In this document: piece after piece, positions 9,807 through 24,100 of the stretch
Numbering within the stretch: position 1 is the stretch's first letter
Layout: each line of letters opens with the position of its first letter
NCBI RefSeq assembly: GCF_024362485.1
Contig: NZ_CP101456.1
Span: 3,658,001 to 3,722,000, forward strand
Length of the DNA stretch: 64,000 bases
Direction of reading: 5' to 3'
From: Natronobeatus ordinarius
GTDB lineage: Archaea; Halobacteriota; Halobacteria; Halobacteriales; Natrialbaceae
Made by a program: the position numbers and the translations under genes
Notes under the pieces: model-generated
Database searches by the model: none
Told to the model about the DNA's origin: nothing
What the model saw: the letters and a program-made list of their open reading frames with translations, nothing else

Positions 9807-11383
9807 GTAGTTGGATAGCGTGATCAGGACTCACCGGTTAGTGATGCCTCTCATCCTAATCTGAGTTCTTGCCCACCGAGGATGGACTGGAGCTGTTCAG
9901 GTGGATCAAGTCCTCGTCGTTTCCACGTGGCTAACATGGTCGTGATCGTCTCGTGAATCTGGACCCCTTCGGCTGAGCGGAGGGTCCGGAACATCTTCCG
10001 CAGCACCACTTGCTCGCGCAGAGCGCGCTCTGCGCGATTATTCGTCGAATCGACGTCTGGCTCTGTCACGAACGTCAGCCAGTGGCCTAACCCGTTCCTG
10101 ATCTTCTCGATCAGTTTCTGAACCTCCTGTGACTCATACTCCTCCCTGATCAGCCCTTCCAAGTGTAACGACGCCTCCGCCCGCATCTGCTCGCGGGCGG
10201 AGGCAGACGGGTCCTCTTCGTCGAACGCCGTTAAGTCATCGTGGAGATCGTGCAACTCCGCAGAAAGCCACTCTGCTTCCTCATACCGCTCAGCAACGTA
10301 CTCTGCCTCCCGTAACAGATGCGCCCAGCATCGCTGGAGTTTCGTGTGGTAGCTCCGGTACGCCGACCAGCCGTCACAGCTGAGCGTCGAGTCCTCGGCG
10401 AATTCCTCGCCGAGGACGTCCTCTAACACCTGGCTTCCACGACTCTCATCAACCCAGAACAGCACCTCTTCGTCAGTAACAAACGTCCACGCCCAGTGTT
10501 GCTCTCCATCAACAGGAAAGCCCGTCTCATCACAATAGACGACGTCACTCTCCCGAACACTGGCTTTGACGTCTTCATACGCGGGTCGCAGCCGGTCTGC
10601 GACCCGCTTGGTCAGGTTGTAGATTGTCCGGTGGGAGATGGGGAGATCGAGCTCCCACTCAAACAACTCTGCCTGCTTTCGGTTTGGAAGTCGCTGATGG
10701 AACCTTCCAAGGGCGGTTTGGGCCATGATATTTGGCCCAAACCGCCCGGTTTCCGGGCAGTCAGGATGTTCAGCAACGACCTCGTTTCCACAGGAACAGT
10801 GGTGTTTGCCGAGTTCGTACTCGGTGACAGTGGTTGGAATGGGGAGTGGTATATCGATAATCGTCCGTGAGACGTAGCTGTCCGGGTTAGAGAGTGTCTG
10901 CTCACAGTCTGGGCAATATCCCCGATCAACTCGAATAGTCTCCTCTGGTTCCGGAGGCGGTCGAGTTGTTCCCTCGTGACCTTCGTCACGTCCTGGAGAG
11001 GAGTCGCTGGCGGCGTCAGCGTCGCCGCCAGCGTCGTCCCCTTGGTCTTCGTTCTCTTCCTCGTCGCTGTCATCGTTGCCAGGTGATCCAGCCGCGCCAC
11101 CCTGCTTACTGGGTGGTGTGTTTGGGTTTTCGTACCACTTGAGGCGTGCTTGCAGATTCTCGATCTGCTGTTGCTGTGCTGTGAGTTGACGACGGAGAAG
11201 ACGGTTCTCGAACTCTTTGACTACGAGCTGCTGGCGGAGATGCGTACTGTCCTCAGCGCGGATCGCGGAATCTGTCGATTCCGGCGATCCGCCAATCCCC
11301 AGCGACACACTTGATTTACCATTGAGAGACCATTCATGAGACTGCTACGAAATCGGTCTGGCAGCAAGTCGCTATCCAACTAC
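9807..11383. mobile_element. IS66-family insertion sequence
   Basis: Perfect 14-bp inverted ends are present, gtagttggatagcg at 9807 and cgctatccaactac ending at 11383, with 8-bp direct repeats agttttcc on both sides. The 1577-bp element contains one gene, an IS66-type transposase. The short accessory genes found in many bacterial IS66 elements are absent. It sits inside the outer IS, so it arrived later. Confidence 0.9.
9851..11308 (-). CDS. IS66-family transposase
   Basis: The 485-residue product starts at GTG 11308. It begins with a coiled-coil (LRRQLTAQQQQIENLQARL) followed by an acidic low-complexity linker (residues ~70-115). A zinc-binding region (GYCPDCEQTL and HHCSCGNE) comes next. 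The DDE catalytic domain has VVYCDETGFPV, LSCDGWSAYRSY and STNNRAERALREQVVLRK. This is the domain order of the IS66 family. The frame is intact, so the element could be active. Confidence 0.93.
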   Translation of the reverse strand: MSLGIGGSPESTDSAIRAEDSTHLRQQLVVKEFENRLLRRQLTAQQQQIENLQARLKWYENPNTPPSKQGGAAGSPGNDDSDEEENEDQGDDAGGDADAASDSSPGRDEGHEGTTRPPPEPEETIRVDRGYCPDCEQTLSNPDSYVSRTIIDIPLPIPTTVTEYELGKHHCSCGNEVVAEHPDCPETGRFGPNIMAQTALGRFHQRLPNRKQAELFEWELDLPISHRTIYNLTKRVADRLRPAYEDVKASVRESDVVYCDETGFPVDGEQHWAWTFVTDEEVLFWVDESRGSQVLEDVLGEEFAEDSTLSCDGWSAYRSYHTKLQRCWAHLLREAEYVAERYEEAEWLSAELHDLHDDLTAFDEEDPSASAREQMRAEASLHLEGLIREEYESQEVQKLIEKIRNGLGHWLTFVTEPDVDSTNNRAERALREQVVLRKMFRTLRSAEGVQIHETITTMLATWKRRGLDPPEQLQSILGGQELRLG

Positions 11384-16047: not shown

Positions 16048-16260
16048 TCACCCGCGGGTGCCGACGCGAGGTGGCCGCCGGCCGCACCACTCGGCGATCG
16101 ATCCAGGGCCGGTCGCCTCGAACTCGAGCGTCGAGCATACTCTCGCCCACCACGGATCGATCCTTAGTTCCACGGCGTGGTTGTGCGCGATTTCCTCGAG
16201 CGGCTCGAACAGTTCCGCGTCGGAGACCGCTGTGTTGTGGGTTCGTCTGCACTGTCTCAC
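16048..16260 (-). CDS. Possible small protein of unknown function
   Basis: The frame of 70 codons starts at GTG 16260. Third positions are GC-rich and the peptide reads like a haloarchaeal protein from about residue 13 on (DAELFEPLEEIAHNHAVELR, then a WWAR stretch). No family recognised. It ends 7 bp before the oxidoreductase ATG, compatible with an operon. The start codon falls in the left arm of the long inverted repeat at 16258-16300, which is odd for a real gene. A true start may be further inside. Confidence 0.35.
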   Translation of the reverse strand: MRQCRRTHNTAVSDAELFEPLEEIAHNHAVELRIDPWWARVCSTLEFEATGPGSIAEWCGRRPPRVGTRG

Positions 16261-16300
16261 TTACCCGAACGTAACCATGGTAGTTACGTTCGGGTAAGTG
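16258..16300. repeat. Perfect 18-bp inverted repeat with 7-base loop
   Basis: Arms 16258-16275 and 16283-16300 are perfect complements (cacttacccgaacgtaac on the left) around the loop catggta. It lies between a minus-strand and a plus-strand gene, 36 bp before the ATG at 16337. It could be a dimer-binding operator serving both directions or the scar of a mobile element. Confidence 0.85.
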
Positions 16301-16336
16301 ACTACTTTTGATGATTCGGGAAAATCGTACGAGCAC

Positions 16337-17293
16337 ATGGTACTTCACTTCGGGAAAGCGACGGGCATCTTCGTAAAGACGATGCCTTTCGTGCTGCTTC
16401 GGATGGGGATCGGAATCCTTCTCGGGATCGCTGCGATCCTCTATTTCGGGATCGTCATCGGGTTTGGACTCTGGCTCCTCGACGCCGGAACGATCTCCGG
16501 TGGGATCGGGGCGATCGGCCTGTTACTCGCGATCGTCATCTTCATCGGGGCGTGGCGGCTGATCAGCCGGTACGTCCTGTACCTGGTGAAAGCCGGCCAC
16601 ATCGCCGTCATCGCCCACATCGTCGACACGGGTGAGGTCCCCTCGAACCAGATCGCGTTCGGGAAATCCAAAGTCCGTGAACACTTCAAGGAAGCGAGCG
16701 CGCTGTTCGCCGTCGACCAGCTGGTGAAAGCGATCATCAAGCAGTTCAACAGGCGCGTCGTCTCGTTTTCGAACCTGTTCGCGTTCTCCTCCGGTATCCG
16801 GAACATTATCCGAATCATCGGCCGGGCGATCGCCATCGCCGCCTCCTACATCGACGAGGCGATCATCGCCTACATGTTCACGACCACCGAGGAAAATCCC
16901 TGGCGAGCCGCCAGAGATGGTGTGGTTCTCTACGGGAAAAACTGGAAGCCGGTTCTGGGTTCGACGCTGCTGATCGTCCTCGCGCTGTACGCGGCCACCT
17001 TCGTCATGCTGCTGGCGATGACCCCGATCGCGAGCGTCCTCGGTTCTCTGTCGACGGTGTTCGAGGTCGTCGGCTGGGTCGTCGTCTTCGGCATCGTGCT
17101 CACCATCTACGCCGGCTTCCTCAACCCCTGGGTAAAGACCGTGGTGATCACCACGTTCCTCATCGAAGCCCAGGACGACACGCCCGACAGTGCAACGATG
17201 GAACGGATCGCAGACCGGTCCGATAAGTTCAACGAACTCATGGGGAAAGCCGAAACCGAAGAGAAAGAGCCGGCAACCGCACCGGCACGATAG
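16337..17293 (+). CDS. Multi-pass membrane protein of unknown function
   Basis: The 318-residue protein has about six hydrophobic segments. Two are at residues ~20-45 and ~50-75 and three lie in the C-terminal half, with an amphipathic charged stretch between them (residues ~95-150) and a charged C-terminal tail. Haloarchaeal proteins of this layout are generally unassigned. ATG at 16337 is preferred. A GTG at 16298 would place the start inside the long inverted repeat. It is convergent with the histidine kinase, with only 3 bp between stop codons. Function unknown. Confidence 0.65.
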   Translation: MVLHFGKATGIFVKTMPFVLLRMGIGILLGIAAILYFGIVIGFGLWLLDAGTISGGIGAIGLLLAIVIFIGAWRLISRYVLYLVKAGHIAVIAHIVDTGEVPSNQIAFGKSKVREHFKEASALFAVDQLVKAIIKQFNRRVVSFSNLFAFSSGIRNIIRIIGRAIAIAASYIDEAIIAYMFTTTEENPWRAARDGVVLYGKNWKPVLGSTLLIVLALYAATFVMLLAMTPIASVLGSLSTVFEVVGWVVVFGIVLTIYAGFLNPWVKTVVITTFLIEAQDDTPDSATMERIADRSDKFNELMGKAETEEKEPATAPAR

Positions 17294-17296
17294 CAC

Positions 17297-19525
17297 TCAC
17301 GACCGATCGGCGCTCGAGCGCTCGGTCGCGGTCGGTTCGGGCTCCTGACCGCCGACGTCGATTTCGAATCGCGCACCGCCGTCGGTTCCCTCACAGATCG
17401 TAATATTCCAGCCGTGGGCATCGATCACGTCGCGGACGATCGCGAGGCCGAAGCCGGTTCCGTCATCGCTCGTCGTGTGCCCGCGTTCGAACACCAGCTC
17501 TCGGTACGCTGCTGGAATCCCGACGCCGTCGTCTTCGACGGCGAACCCTCGCACCTCCTCGAGGGGCTCAACTCGAACGGTCACCGGACCGTGTCCGGCG
17601 GCGTCTCCGCGAGCGTTGCGAGCGGAGGCTCGTGGAGCGCCATGCTCCACGGCGTCCTCGCGAGCCTGCGAGTGAGGGCTCGTGGAACCGTGTTCCACGG
17701 CGTCCTCGTGAACGTGTGAACGAGGGCTCGTCGAGCCGTGCTCGACGGCGTCCTCGCGAGTCTGCGAGTGAGGGCTCGTCGAACCGTGTTCGACGGAATT
17801 CCGAAAGAGGTTCTCGAAGACGTGGAGCAACTGCTCGCGGTCGCCGACGACCGTCCAGTCGTCCTCGAGGGCACACTCGAGCGTGGCGGCTCCCGTTCGC
17901 GTCGCCGTCCACGCGTCTTCGACGACCGACCGGAGCGCCACCGGCGACGGCTCCTCGAGCGTCGTCCCGGTTCGGGCCATCGTCAGGAGGTTCGTGATCA
18001 TCCGCTCCATTCGAGCGTGGGCGTCGTGGATCGCCTGGAAGTCGTCCTCAGCTGCGGTTTCCTCGGCGAATCGCGAGTACGTCTGTGCGATACCGAGTGG
18101 TGTTCGCAGGTCGTGACTGATCACACCGGCGAACTCGTCCAGTCGCCGGTTGGTTCGCTCGAGTTCGCGTTCGCGCTCGATTCGGTCGGTGACGTCCCTC
18201 GAGTTGATCACGATCCCGCCGACGATCTCGTTGTCGAACAGGTCGACGGCGACGCCCTCGAGGACGACCCAGGAGCCATCCTGGTGTCTGACCCGGTACT
18301 CAAAGCGCGTCTCCTGGGCAGGGCCGTCACGGAGGACGGTGAAGCCGTCGATCGCGTTGGGACGGTCGTCGTCGTGGACGAACTCGAGCAGCGACCGGCC
18401 GACGACCGCAGCGGGACGGTAGCCGAGGACGGTCCGAACCGAGGGGCTGGCGTAGGTGAAGACTCCCTGCTCGTCGATCACCGTGATCACGTCGGAGACG
18501 TTCTCGATCAGCGCCTGGAACCGCTTTTCCGCCTGGCGCTGATCGGTGACGTCCCTGAGCATCAACACGACGCCTTCGGTTCGCTCGTCTCTGACGGCCG
18601 AGACGGTCGCGTCGACGATCGCGTTATCTCTGGTAATCGTCAGCTCTCGCGTCTCACCCTCAAGCAGTGGCCGACACTCCGGAAGCACGACGTCGATCGA
18701 TTTTCCGACGGCCCGCGGCTCACCGAGAAGCGACCGGGCTGCCGGGTTGAGGTCGACGACCCGTTGCTCGTAGTCGACGACCAGATAGCCGTCACGCATC
18801 CCGTCGACGACGCTGTCGCGAGCGATCGGGACGAGGTCGAGCCACCGGTACCGGTAGAGGGCGAGCGCGATCAACGCGCCAGTCGCGCCGAAGCCCCAGA
18901 CGGAGTAGTTGATCGCCGTCGTCTCGTTGTGGGCGAGCACGTTCGCGACGCCCGGGATCAACGGCGCCAGCAGGACCAGCCGCGCCTGCTTGTGATAGAC
19001 CTCGCTCCCCCGGGCGTCGAGGTACTCGAGGAAGAAGACGTAGATGCCCGCGCCCGAGAGCCCCCAGTTGTAGAGGACGTACACCCAGTAGATCGGGTTC
19101 TGGTACTCCTCGACGGGGAGGAGCACCTCGGTGAACTGCATCGGCTCGTGCATCAACCCGTGGAGGCCGTTCGTCCACGTCAGGACGATCCAGCCGCCAG
19201 TGACGAGGTAGACGACCCCGAGGCGACGGACGCGGAGCCAGTCTTCGCGCCCGGTGTACGCCATGGCGAAGTGAAACAGCCCGGTCGACATGACGACCGC
19301 ACCGGAGTCGATGGTTTTCGCCAGGACGAATCCAACGACCGGATCGGTTTCGACGAGGAGAACACCCTGCGGAATCGTCCACAGGGCGATCCCCGAAAGG
19401 AACGTCACCAGCGGGAGTACGTCCCCTCTCGAGCGCGTCCGGAGGATCAACGCGCCGAGGACGAGATTCAGCAGTCCAATCGCTACGAGCGAGACTGCGT
19501 GAATCGTCGTGAATTCCTGACTCAC
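17297..19525 (-). CDS. 7TM-PAS-PAS sensor histidine kinase
   Basis: Starting at GTG 19525 it has 742 residues. Seven hydrophobic segments fill residues ~1-235 (histidine-kinase 7TM type). A PAS domain follows (DGMRDGYLVVDYEQRVVDLN), then a second PAS (NVSDVITVIDEQGVFTYASP). HisKA comes next with the phospho-accepting His in FAGVISHDLRTPLG. The HATPase domain has an N box (ENLFRNSVEHG), a G1 box (DDGVGIP) and a G2 box (GTGFGLAIV). Between the N and G1 boxes there is a four-fold repeat insertion. A single-domain response regulator gene starts 589 bp upstream on the same strand and may be its partner. The signal is unknown. Confidence 0.9.
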   Translation of the reverse strand: MSQEFTTIHAVSLVAIGLLNLVLGALILRTRSRGDVLPLVTFLSGIALWTIPQGVLLVETDPVVGFVLAKTIDSGAVVMSTGLFHFAMAYTGREDWLRVRRLGVVYLVTGGWIVLTWTNGLHGLMHEPMQFTEVLLPVEEYQNPIYWVYVLYNWGLSGAGIYVFFLEYLDARGSEVYHKQARLVLLAPLIPGVANVLAHNETTAINYSVWGFGATGALIALALYRYRWLDLVPIARDSVVDGMRDGYLVVDYEQRVVDLNPAARSLLGEPRAVGKSIDVVLPECRPLLEGETRELTITRDNAIVDATVSAVRDERTEGVVLMLRDVTDQRQAEKRFQALIENVSDVITVIDEQGVFTYASPSVRTVLGYRPAAVVGRSLLEFVHDDDRPNAIDGFTVLRDGPAQETRFEYRVRHQDGSWVVLEGVAVDLFDNEIVGGIVINSRDVTDRIERERELERTNRRLDEFAGVISHDLRTPLGIAQTYSRFAEETAAEDDFQAIHDAHARMERMITNLLTMARTGTTLEEPSPVALRSVVEDAWTATRTGAATLECALEDDWTVVGDREQLLHVFENLFRNSVEHGSTSPHSQTREDAVEHGSTSPRSHVHEDAVEHGSTSPHSQAREDAVEHGAPRASARNARGDAAGHGPVTVRVEPLEEVRGFAVEDDGVGIPAAYRELVFERGHTTSDDGTGFGLAIVRDVIDAHGWNITICEGTDGGARFEIDVGGQEPEPTATERSSADRS
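17601..17795. repeat. In-frame tandem repeat within the kinase ATP-binding domain
   Basis: Three 48-bp units (17652-17699, 17700-17747, 17748-17795) and one degenerate 51-bp unit (17601-17651) encode tandem copies of a 16-residue VEHGSTSPHSQAREDA-like block. The unit begins with the VEHG of the N box itself, so the box sequence is duplicated several times. Confidence 0.85.
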
Positions 19526-19685: not shown

Positions 19686-20114
19686 TCACCCGAGGGCGCT
19701 CTCGATGCACTCTTCGAGTTCCGACCCCGAGACCGGTTTGGTGAGGTAGCCGTCGACCCCGACCTCGACAGCATCGTCGTCGGGGTCAACCGCCGAAATC
19801 ATGATTCGACGGCAGTTGATCCCTCGCTCCTCGAGCGTCTCGATCACCTCGTCACCGGAGAGGGCGGGCATCCGTCGATCGATGAGCAGCACGTCGACGG
19901 AGTCGTCGATGACGTCGAGGGCAACGCGGCCGTCGTAGGCGGTCAGCACGCGGTAGCGCTCCTCGAGCAGTCTGGCGTGGGCGTCCGCGTACAGCGGCTC
20001 GTCGTCGACGATCAGCACGGTTGTGTCATCCGACGTAGTCAATAGTGAAATCGTAGACGCCAGTTGTAATAACTGTTCCCGCTGGCTGGATGCACACGGT
20101 AACGGGACACTCAC
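19686..20114 (-). CDS. Single-domain response regulator
   Basis: The receiver domain shows the acidic pair in VLIVDDEPLY, the phospho-acceptor Asp in VLLIDRRMPALSGDEV, the switch Ser/Thr in RIMISAVDPDDD and the Lys in GYLTKPVS. No output domain follows, so it acts by protein contact, or by relaying phosphate. The first ~25 residues before the receiver look non-conserved. A TTG at 20042 is an alternative start. It is encoded upstream of the histidine kinase on the same strand with a 160-bp gap, consistent with a two-component pair. Confidence 0.85.
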   Translation of the reverse strand: MSVPLPCASSQREQLLQLASTISLLTTSDDTTVLIVDDEPLYADAHARLLEERYRVLTAYDGRVALDVIDDSVDVLLIDRRMPALSGDEVIETLEERGINCRRIMISAVDPDDDAVEVGVDGYLTKPVSGSELEECIESALG

Positions 20115-21153: not shown

Positions 21154-24100
21154 GCTTCAACCCCACGAGGGTTCGTCTGAAACTAGCGTTCTACAGCGGT
21201 TGCCAACGTGTTTATTACGCTTCAACCCCACGAGGGTTCGTCTGAAACTTTCGAGTACGGCGAGCTGGAGGTCACCTCTGAAGGCTTCAACCCCACGAGG
21301 GTTCGTCTGAAACTCAATGTCTGCACAACCTGATCGAAGTCTGGTGATCGCTTCAACCCCACGAGGGTTCGTCTGAAACCACTGTCCGAAGTGCTCGAAC
21401 CCGTGGGAACAGATTGCTTCAACCCCACGAGGGTTCGTCTGAAACCCGTTTCATCGCTCGAGTCTCCGCTTGTTCGTTCAGCTTCAACCCCACGAGGGTT
21501 CGTCTGAAACCTCGAGGCGTTCACGGCCCTGCGATCGACCGGCGGCGCTTCAACCCCACGAGGGTTCGTCTGAAACTCTGTGATGATGCACTTTCATTCC
21601 CCGGCTCGTTTCGCTTCAACCCCACGAGGGTTCGTCTGAAACTGTCGTCCCGGCCGACGGATCCGAGACGTTCCCGACCGCTTCAACCCCACGAGGGTTC
21701 GTCTGAAACCTGGTCTTTTGGATCGGCGTCGGTAAGGTCCTCGAGCTTCAACCCCACGAGGGTTCGTCTGAAACCACGGGTTCGAGCACTTCGGACAGTG
21801 CCGCGTGACGCTTCAACCCCACGAGGGTTCGTCTGAAACAAGACGAACTTCGCGCTCCTGCTCGCTCAGTTGTGGCTTCAACCCCACGAGGGTTCGTCTG
21901 AAACGCGAGCCGATCGGCGAGGTACTCGACGTCGGCCGGTCGCTTCAACCCCACGAGGGTTCGTCTGAAACACCACGAGGACCTATTCCCGATCCCAACG
22001 GCAAGATCGCTTCAACCCCACGAGGGTTCGTCTGAAACCGGCTCGAGGACGGCGTCAGCGTTTACGCCTGCGAGGCTTCAACCCCACGAGGGTTCGTCTG
22101 AAACTCGGGGTCGCCGTAGACCATTTCCCACGCCGTGCTTCAACCCCACGAGGGTTCGTCTGAAACTGGCGCCGAGCGACTGCCGTCTCGGTCCGTTCGC
22201 CGAGCTTCAACCCCACGAGGGTTCGTCTGAAACCCTCGAGATACTCGTACTTCGTCACGACGTAGTCGCTTCAACCCCACGAGGGTTCGTCTGAAACGCC
22301 CGCGACATGGCCGAGGACATGGTCGAGGACGAGCTTCAACCCCACGAGGGTTCGTCTGAAACCCGTCGATCTCGCTCGATGTCGATCTCCATGAGCTTGC
22401 TTCAACCCCACGAGGGTTCGTCTGAAACCGTCGTCGGCGAGGCGGGCCCCCGCCGGCGTTCCAGAGCTTCAACCCCACGAGGGTTCGTCTGAAACCTCCG
22501 GAGTCATCGTCTCCGCCGGACCGGTCCGGAGCTTCAACCCCACGAGGGTTCGTCTGAAACCGTCGCCGGGGGAGTGCATCGGGTTCTCCCAGCCAAAGCT
22601 TCAACCCCACGAGGGTTCGTCTGAAACGCCTGTTGTCGCGTGATAGACTGGTATTGTAAACTCATCGCTTCAACCCCACGAGGGTTCGTCTGAAACGACG
22701 AAATCAAACAACGGACGGAAGACGGAGAAGGGGCTTCAACCCCACGAGGGTTCGTCTGAAACCGGCGACGAACTGGCCCGGATCGCCGACGTCGGCGCTT
22801 CAACCCCACGAGGGTTCGTCTGAAACTGTGCAAACAATTCGTTCGTCGTCGGTGCCGCGGTTGCTTCAACCCCACGAGGGTTCGTCTGAAACGATGAGCT
22901 GCCAGAGCAGGTCGACCGCCGCCCAGATGCTTCAACCCCACGAGGGTTCGTCTGAAACCTCTGTCGCTGCTGCCGTTCCCGTCGCCGACGTGGGCTTCAA
23001 CCCCACGAGGGTTCGTCTGAAACGAACACGGCGAACCCGTACTCGTCGAAGACGTAGAAGCTTCAACCCCACGAGGGTTCGTCTGAAACCACGCAATCCA
23101 CATCCGTCAGCCTTGGCTGTCGAGAGCTTCAACCCCACGAGGGTTCGTCTGAAACCCGAAGTCCCACGCCTCATCGTCCTCGAGCGTTCGCTTCAACCCC
23201 ACGAGGGTTCGTCTGAAACGACGTCTGGCTGTGCGGGTAGCTATCCCACTCGTCGCTTCAACCCCACGAGGGTTCGTCTGAAACACTCTCGTTGACACAG
23301 TCCAGCGGCTCTTTGAGGAGCTTCAACCCCACGAGGGTTCGTCTGAAACACTGCAGTGACGAGACGACGCACGAACTACCGGCCGCTTCAACCCCACGAG
23401 GGTTCGTCTGAAACAGGTGGTGAGGATCGAAGTGACTCGGTGCGAACCGGTGCTTCAACCCCACGAGGGTTCGTCTGAAACCAGTCGCGTACGACGATGT
23501 TGGCGCTCCGTGGCGGGCTTCAACCCCACGAGGGTTCGTCTGAAACACGGGGCGACGTTCTTCCTTGATCAGGATGAGGTCGCTTCAACCCCACGAGGGT
23601 TCGTCTGAAACCGTGCGTCTTCTTTTTCGCGTGCTGAGGTTTGTGGTCGCTTCAACCCCACGAGGGTTCGTCTGAAACGTCGCCCGTGATGGGATGATTG
23701 AGGAGATTTTCGGGCTTCAACCCCACGAGGGTTCGTCTGAAACCCGTGACGCGCTCGATGCCCGCCATCTGCTCCTCGCTTCAACCCCACGAGGGTTCGT
23801 CTGAAACCGGTGGCGAGTCCGGGCCAAAAGAGGATCGTCGAGCTTCAACCCCACGAGGGTTCGTCTGAAACAACCCGCTCCGCGTGCGCGAACAAACGGG
23901 AATCCGCTTCAACCCCACGAGGGTTCGTCTGAAACGGTAATCCCTCCACCATCTTCCGTCGTATCCGAGTAGCTTCAACCCCACGAGGGTTCGTCTGAAA
24001 CAGTCGCTCGTAGTCGTCGTATCCTCGAACGGCGGTGCTTCAACCCCACGAGGGTTCGTCTGAAACAGTCATGGTAAGGCAATGCTTTAGTAATACAACG

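What the first reader, a model, noticed from the sequence alone, without database searches (positions are those of the whole stretch)
16258..16300. 43-bp perfect inverted repeat in a divergent gene gap
18 perfect base pairs with a 7-base loop are far beyond chance. Both the possible minus gene start (16260) and the alternative plus start (16298) fall in its arms. It may be a strong operator, an RNA hairpin in both messages, or the trace of an excised element.
Basis: seen in the sequence. Interest (0 to 1): 0.5.

Follow-up and report, generated by a model that had tools for sequence, protein, structure and literature searches.

The report
Twin regulator sites switching surface proteins
The striking inverted repeat in this salt-loving archaeon is most likely a pair of docking sites for a gene regulator that controls a set of cell-surface and exported proteins, and comparison with relatives points to which regulator it is.

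Summary
The repeat is real and slightly longer than reported: 16257-16301, two perfect 19-bp arms, 7-nt loop. It is not a lone hairpin. It is two copies of a 14-bp palindromic box, TTAC-N6-GTAA, 23 bp apart, ending 39 bp before the conserved ATG (16337) of a membrane protein. The same genome has 15 such doublets (up to 3 mismatches) against 0 for the reversed control; 13 of 15 adjoin genes for exported or membrane proteins (judged by eye), 8 of them 36-49 bp before the start codon. Three other genera keep doublets before the same gene, with different N6 letters. Doublets cluster beside genes for an HxlR-REC-HalX response regulator (25 of 56 loci; at most 2 for six scrambled motifs), and in a 101-genome sample are enriched only where a close relative of it exists. 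The window gene is tail-to-tail with a 7TM histidine kinase; in a relative the same pair lies directly beside the regulator gene. Best reading: a tandem upstream activating site of a two-component system for a surface-protein regulon. Binding, phosphorylation and activation are inferred. The perfect mirror symmetry looks specific to this copy.

The parts
16257..16301 (.). perfect inverted repeat, 19-bp arms, 7-nt loop (the finding)
16261..16274 (.). box 1, TTACCCGAACGTAA (TTAC-N6-GTAA)
   Evidence: genome and relative searches
16284..16297 (.). box 2, TTACGTTCGGGTAA, start-to-start 23 bp from box 1
16304..16311 (+). weak TATA-like stretch directly downstream of box 2; by eye, inferred core promoter
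   Evidence: sequence, compared by eye with the other doublet promoters
16337..17293 (+). uncharacterised membrane protein, 318 aa (membrane nature judged by eye); regulated gene
   Evidence: matches in 59 of 101 family genomes, the own one included; ATG kept in 62 of 65 loci; no Pfam, NCBIfam or PDB sequence match
17297..19525 (-). 7TM-PAS-HisKA-HATPase histidine kinase; start about 19525 inferred from homologs (the ORF as listed runs to 19789)
   Evidence: Pfam HisKA_7TM, PAS, HisKA, HATPase_c; 70% identical to the kinase next to the regulator gene in G001 and 60% to one beside a doublet in G081
19686..20114 (-). stand-alone receiver domain protein next to the kinase
   Evidence: Pfam Response_reg 2.3e-19

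Best explanation
The inverted repeat is a tandem regulatory site: two 14-bp palindromic boxes TTAC-N6-GTAA, each fit for a dimer, two helical turns apart, placed just upstream of the core promoter of the membrane-protein gene at 16337. Shown by sequence: the box, its preferred 22-23 bp doublet spacing, its recurrence before genes of exported and membrane proteins, its retention in three other genera, and its association with genes for an HxlR-REC-HalX response regulator (in this genome at G000:C1:949342-950148). Inferred: two dimers of that regulator bind side by side on one face of the DNA; the position directly upstream of BRE/TATA and the weak TATA make activation likelier than repression; a 7TM histidine kinase such as the one at 17297-19525, and/or the REC-HATPase protein encoded next to the regulator, sets its phosphorylation state. 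The perfect mirror symmetry of this copy is extra: because each box is itself a palindrome the doublet is a quasi-palindrome, and a template-switch event may have copied one arm onto the other.
For: Own genome: single box at 17 places against 5 for the reversed control; doublets with up to 3 mismatches 12 at spacing 23 and 3 at spacing 22, controls 0 and 0. Thirteen of these 15 adjoin a gene whose product has an export signal, lipobox or membrane segments (by eye); 8 of 13 end 36-49 bp before the ATG, the others 82, 115, 119, 229 and 421. Same-gene retention: doublets before the window gene and five relatives, 6 of 65 homolog loci, four genera counting the window's own; by eye also before similar beta-helix, PQQ, DUF4870-like and coiled-coil surface genes in other genera. 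Spacing in loci fetched by gene: 18 of 35 unique box pairs at 22-23 bp, no other spacing above 4 (33 bp); five scrambled motifs gave 0-3 pairs each. Regulator: doublets within 3.5 kb of an HxlR-REC gene in 25 of 56 loci, six scrambled motifs 0-2 loci; 11 of the 33 loci chosen by gene alone, 7 of the 20 from other families; within 400 bp after the stop codon 10 of 23 loci, two controls none; 0 doublets in 149 kb of 56 membrane-protein loci. Profile: 20 genomes with a close regulator 98 doublets against 31 control; the other 81, 138 against 158; Mann-Whitney 7e-7, and 1.2e-4 without the five discovery genomes; other score cut-offs gave similar values. Synteny: G001 carries regulator, 7TM kinase and membrane-protein gene with boxes in one cluster, the kinase 70% identical to the window's.
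Against: No binding or expression data. In this genome the regulator gene lies 2.7 Mb away along the contig, so the link rests on relatives. 31 of 56 regulator loci show no doublet within 3.5 kb, the own genome's among them (nearest doublet about 4 kb off). 59 of 65 homolog loci of the membrane protein have none, including three (L012, L013, L016) about as similar as some that do. Some genomes with a close regulator show no excess of doublets, for example G012 and G024, 3 against 4 each. Genomes in the profile test share ancestry, so its p-value overstates independence. Five of 13 doublets lie 82-421 bp from the assigned start. A DUF7344 helix-turn-helix gene lies near four-box arrays in two genomes and is a competing regulator. 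The REC and HalX parts of the own-genome regulator score below Pfam cut-offs, and the structure model is weak (mean pLDDT 61.5, pTM 0.43).
Confidence: 0.82

Rival explanations
1. The doublet is an operator for a repressor: regulator dimers at the BRE edge block TFB/TBP until a signal releases them.
For: Boxes abut the core promoter, where archaeal repressors can also sit; PMC6085418 (passages seen) cites a negative semi-palindromic element immediately upstream of a BRE.
Against: Eight doublets end 36-49 bp before the start codon, upstream of rather than over the presumed BRE/TATA, and the core promoter at 16304-16311 looks weak by eye. PMC13286277 (passages seen) infers positive regulation from the same kind of position for another haloarchaeal regulator.
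Confidence: 0.3
2. The boxes belong to another regulator, for example a DUF7344 helix-turn-helix protein, and the HxlR-REC gene is only a frequent neighbour or a target.
For: Four-box arrays lie upstream of a DUF7344 gene in G032 and G005, about 410-460 bp before its start; one G081 doublet is close to another DUF7344 gene.
Against: HxlR-REC loci carry doublets across several families and the genome-wide profile follows HxlR-REC. The DUF7344 link was seen in three genomes and not tested on the rest.
Confidence: 0.12
3. The repeat acts as a hairpin, in RNA as attenuator or terminator or in DNA as a cruciform.
For: Very stable fold; listed among two terminator-like matches.
Against: The mirror pairing is not general: core pairs 0-5 of 6 in the nine other own-genome doublets examined. 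The expected plus transcript starts downstream of it. Spacing prefers 22-23 bp, as for side-by-side proteins.
Confidence: 0.04
4. It is the scar or end of a mobile element.
For: Long perfect inverted repeats are typical element ends.
Against: No exact copy of the core outside the repeat; orthologous promoters in other genera carry the boxes.
Confidence: 0.01

Closest known systems
HxlR-REC-HalX response regulators of haloarchaea (architecture listed in PMC5847659)
   Same: The candidate regulator has an HxlR winged helix at full score and weaker REC and HalX matches in that order.
   Different: PMC5847659 (abstract and passages seen) lists the architecture, says DNA binding by HalX has not been documented and that archaeal response regulators with DNA-binding domains are few; the passages shown give no binding site or targets.
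HxlR-family operators of bacteria (YodB, HypR type)
   Same: Winged-helix dimers on short palindromes (recalled, from no call).
   Different: Here tandem boxes with a preferred two-turn spacing, a fused receiver, and a core-promoter position typical of activators.
Haloarchaeal sites next to BRE/TATA, for example CsmR TATCA-N4-TGATA (PMC13286277)
   Same: Semi-palindromic site next to the TATA box, many targets (passages seen).
   Different: Different sequence; a single site rather than a doublet in the passages seen; different regulator and regulon.
Semi-palindromic elements of the sptA promoter in Natrinema sp. J7-2 (PMC6085418)
   Same: A regulated exported protein in a Natrialbaceae member, palindromes upstream of TATA (passages seen).
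   Different: Sequences GAAAT-N7-ATTTC, TTCTT-N10-AAGAA and GAA-N4-TTC, not TTAC-N6-GTAA.

Membership tests
Palindromic transcription-factor operator (regulon site) | recurs in the genome above a matched control | tested here: met
   15 doublets against 0; single box 17 against 5
Palindromic transcription-factor operator (regulon site) | promoter-proximal position before coherent genes | tested here: met
   8 of 13 at 36-49 bp before the ATG; 13 of 15 next to exported or membrane proteins, by eye
Palindromic transcription-factor operator (regulon site) | retained in orthologous promoters | tested here: met
   6 of 65 homolog loci, the own one included, in four genera; absent from the other 59
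Palindromic transcription-factor operator (regulon site) | bound by a protein | not testable with these tools
   needs EMSA, footprinting or ChIP
HxlR-REC-HalX response regulator (candidate binder) | HxlR winged-helix domain | tested here: met
   PF01638 81.8 bits, cut-off 20.8, own-genome protein
HxlR-REC-HalX response regulator (candidate binder) | receiver domain with acidic residue, phospho-acceptor Asp and Lys | tested here: inconclusive
   PF00072 21.4 bits, below its cut-off 30.2; D119, D161 and K205-P206 invariant in 9 sequences, their roles assigned by recall
[quoted passage not shown]
   PF08663 17.0 bits, cut-off 23.2
HxlR-REC-HalX response regulator (candidate binder) | site co-occurs with the regulator gene | tested here: met
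   25 of 56 loci, scrambled motifs at most 2; profile p 7e-7
Intrinsic terminator or attenuator hairpin | hairpin inside a transcript, conserved as a hairpin | tested here: not met
   mirror pairing of cores is not kept in the other doublets examined; position relative to the transcript is inferred only
Mobile-element end or scar | other genomic copies, or absence from orthologous sites | tested here: not met
   no exact copy of the core outside the repeat; boxes present in relatives

The most novel reading that the evidence does not exclude
A two-component system spread over several haloarchaeal families (7TM sensor kinase and/or REC-HATPase partner, HxlR-REC-HalX response regulator) directly switches a coat of exported proteins (giant beta-helix and PKD/PQQ proteins, lipoproteins, membrane proteins) through tandem TTAC-N6-GTAA activating sites, giving this class of archaeal response regulator a DNA target and a regulon, with four-box arrays as stronger forms.
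Probability: 0.5. Interest if true: 0.75.

Novelty: new variant of a known kind. Interest (0 to 1): 0.6.

Why it matters
The 2018 census of archaeal two-component systems (PMC5847659, abstract and passages seen) concludes that archaeal signalling appears to run mainly through protein contacts rather than direct transcriptional control, and lists HxlR-REC-HalX without targets in the passages shown. A predicted site, spacing rule and regulon make that directly testable: one mutant, one ChIP experiment, one reporter series. It also offers a handle on how halophilic archaea change their exposed surface.

Tried and rejected
Rejected: RNA hairpin, cruciform, mobile-element scar (see rivals). The sigma-70 promoter scan is not suited to archaea. 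Doublets without mismatch occur in 1 of 101 family genomes only, the window's own (3 sites), so a strict pattern would have missed the conservation; with 3 mismatches many genomes show no excess over control. G059, 8 against 1 with no regulator hit, is unexplained. At spacing 22 the counts against control were G005 9/3, G032 9/3, G077 8/1, G004 5/3 and G081 2/2, so the excess is not uniform.

Membrane-protein identity: a likeness to choline-transporter-like proteins came from recall and gained no support; I leave it unnamed. The structure model of the regulator was too weak to use, so no fold search was run. Literature searches: the letters TTACNNNNNNGTAA, 0 papers; TTACCTCGAGGTAA, 15 papers, none with a title about archaea and none opened; HxlR with haloarchaea, 4; HxlR with response regulator, 1; HalX, 4; Natrialbaceae with regulon, 0. 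I opened four papers by passage search only; none of the passages shown has this site.

Selection caveats: 3 of the 56 regulator loci (L183, L197, L199) were found through their boxes, and for several of L240-L247 I knew that a box lay near; the 33 loci L288-L320 were chosen by gene alone. I fetched 56 regulator loci, not every place listed. The control left out L009-L017, six of which are the doublet-bearing loci. One search used all 101 genomes and the spacing-23 pattern only. Export signals and similarity of surface genes between genomes were judged by eye; no signal-peptide program or alignment was run for them. The output was cut; the two non-surface sites were looked at again.

Full report
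What is there. The window comes from a 4.2-Mb haloarchaeal genome. The repeat is 16257-16301, 19-bp perfect arms and a 7-nt loop, far beyond chance. Its start codons are not the likely ones: ATG 16337 is kept in 62 of 65 homolog loci, and the minus gene, an LLM-class oxidoreductase, starts at ATG 16040.

From hairpin to doublet. Upstream regions of several close homologs share not the arms but a pattern: TTAC-N6-GTAA or a near match twice, starts 22-23 bp apart. In the window the two boxes are 16261-16274 and 16284-16297. In the whole genome the single box occurs at 17 places against 5 for the reversed control. The doublet with up to 3 mismatches occurs 12 times at spacing 23 and 3 times at spacing 22, with no control match. 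In the window it is the only match at spacing 23; 2 of 100 shuffles had one.

What the doublets precede. Of the 15, 13 adjoin genes for exported or membrane proteins by eye: a 1408-aa PQQ/PKD protein, beta-helix proteins, a PQQ-repeat Tat protein, lipoproteins, Tat proteins, a GLUG-motif protein, a PKD protein, a DUF4870-like membrane protein (Pfam score below cut-off) and the window gene. Eight end 36, 36, 37, 37, 39, 40, 45 and 49 bp before the ATG; five lie 82, 115, 119, 229 and 421 bp away, with less certain assignment. The remaining two are probably chance: 323417 lies between two ordinary divergent genes, ending 9 bp before an ATG, and 2086346 lies inside an ORF. In haloarchaea, leaderless transcripts put BRE/TATA about 25-38 bp before the ATG (recalled), so the second box abuts the core promoter, a usual place for an archaeal activator.

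Conservation. Doublets lie before window-gene relatives in G001, G074, G005, G032 and G077, but not in 59 of the 65 homolog loci examined. Similar targets by eye: beta-helix and PQQ genes in G032, a DUF4870-like gene and a giant surface gene in G004, a coiled-coil surface gene in G081 and G032. Box pairs in loci fetched by gene fall at 22-23 bp in 18 of 35 cases; the next commonest spacing is 33 bp with 4, in line with helical phasing; five scrambled motifs gave 0, 2, 3, 0 and 1 pairs.

The regulator. Beside doublets in G004, G032 and G005 lies a gene for a 273-285 aa protein with an HxlR domain, divergent from a REC-HATPase gene. A profile of the three finds it in 40 of 101 family genomes at E up to 1e-40, once in the window's genome at 949342-950148; that copy also matches REC and HalX weakly. 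In an order-level sample 46 of 392 genomes have it at E up to 1e-60. Doublets scoring 13 or more of 16 lie within 3.5 kb of it in 25 of 56 loci fetched, against 0-2 loci for six scrambled motifs; among the 33 loci chosen by gene alone the number is 11, and among the 20 from other families 7. Within 400 bp after its stop codon it is 10 of 23 loci, two controls none. Fifty-six membrane-protein loci, 149 kb, hold none (L009-L017, six of them with doublets, were left out of that control). In the 20 genomes with a close regulator (340 bits or more) the spacing-23 pattern counts 98 against 31 control; in the other 81, 138 against 158. Individual genomes vary: G012 and G024 have the regulator and no excess.

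The kinase link. The window gene is tail-to-tail with a 7TM-PAS histidine kinase (17297 to about 19525). In G001 a kinase 70% identical lies directly after the regulator gene and tail-to-tail with the membrane-protein gene and its boxes. In G081 a 60% identical kinase lies beside a doublet. This suggests, without proof, that the kinase feeds the regulator.

Why this copy is a perfect mirror. Two perfect palindromic boxes force 8 of 14 mirror pairs. The window copy has all 14, and the symmetry extends to 19 bp. The nine other own-genome doublets examined have 6-12 of 14. Quasipalindrome template switching is a described cause of arm homogenisation (abstract starts seen for PMC7202029, PMC3820800 and PMC8604942). 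I take it as the likeliest cause here, untested.

Limits. All links are comparative. The sign of regulation, the signal, the role of phosphorylation and the function of the membrane protein are open. 31 of 56 regulator loci show no doublet near them.

Noticed in passing
window 21222-21836: ORF translations show a CRISPR-like repeat array (recurring repeats in both strands' translations; label by eye).
   Followed up: no
window 9851-11308 (-): IS66-like transposase ORF (label from recall; sequence).
   Followed up: no
L180 4377-4457; L181 4394-4475: Arrays of four TTAC-N6-GTAA-like boxes at 22-23 bp period, upstream of a DUF7344 helix-turn-helix gene in two genomes.
   Followed up: partly
L181 159-3964; L192 1648-4016: Genes that look like TasA/DUF1102-type exported proteins, in L181 with a signal peptidase, lie near box sites (labels from recall).
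   Followed up: no
L300, L302, L304-L307: In other haloarchaeal families the doublets sit about 610-740 bp upstream of the HxlR-REC start in six loci.
   Followed up: no
L239 5956-9539 (-): The surface-protein gene next to the regulator in the window's genome looks split by a frame change.
   Followed up: no
L033, L034, L036, L042, L044 (upstream of the membrane-protein gene): By eye, the end of a gene like the doublet-bearing lipoprotein of L103 precedes the membrane-protein homolog in these loci, so two regulon members are neighbours elsewhere.
   Followed up: partly
L076 about 14-140: A longer imperfect inverted element resembling a MITE; similar-looking stretches in L015 and L183 (by eye).
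   Followed up: no
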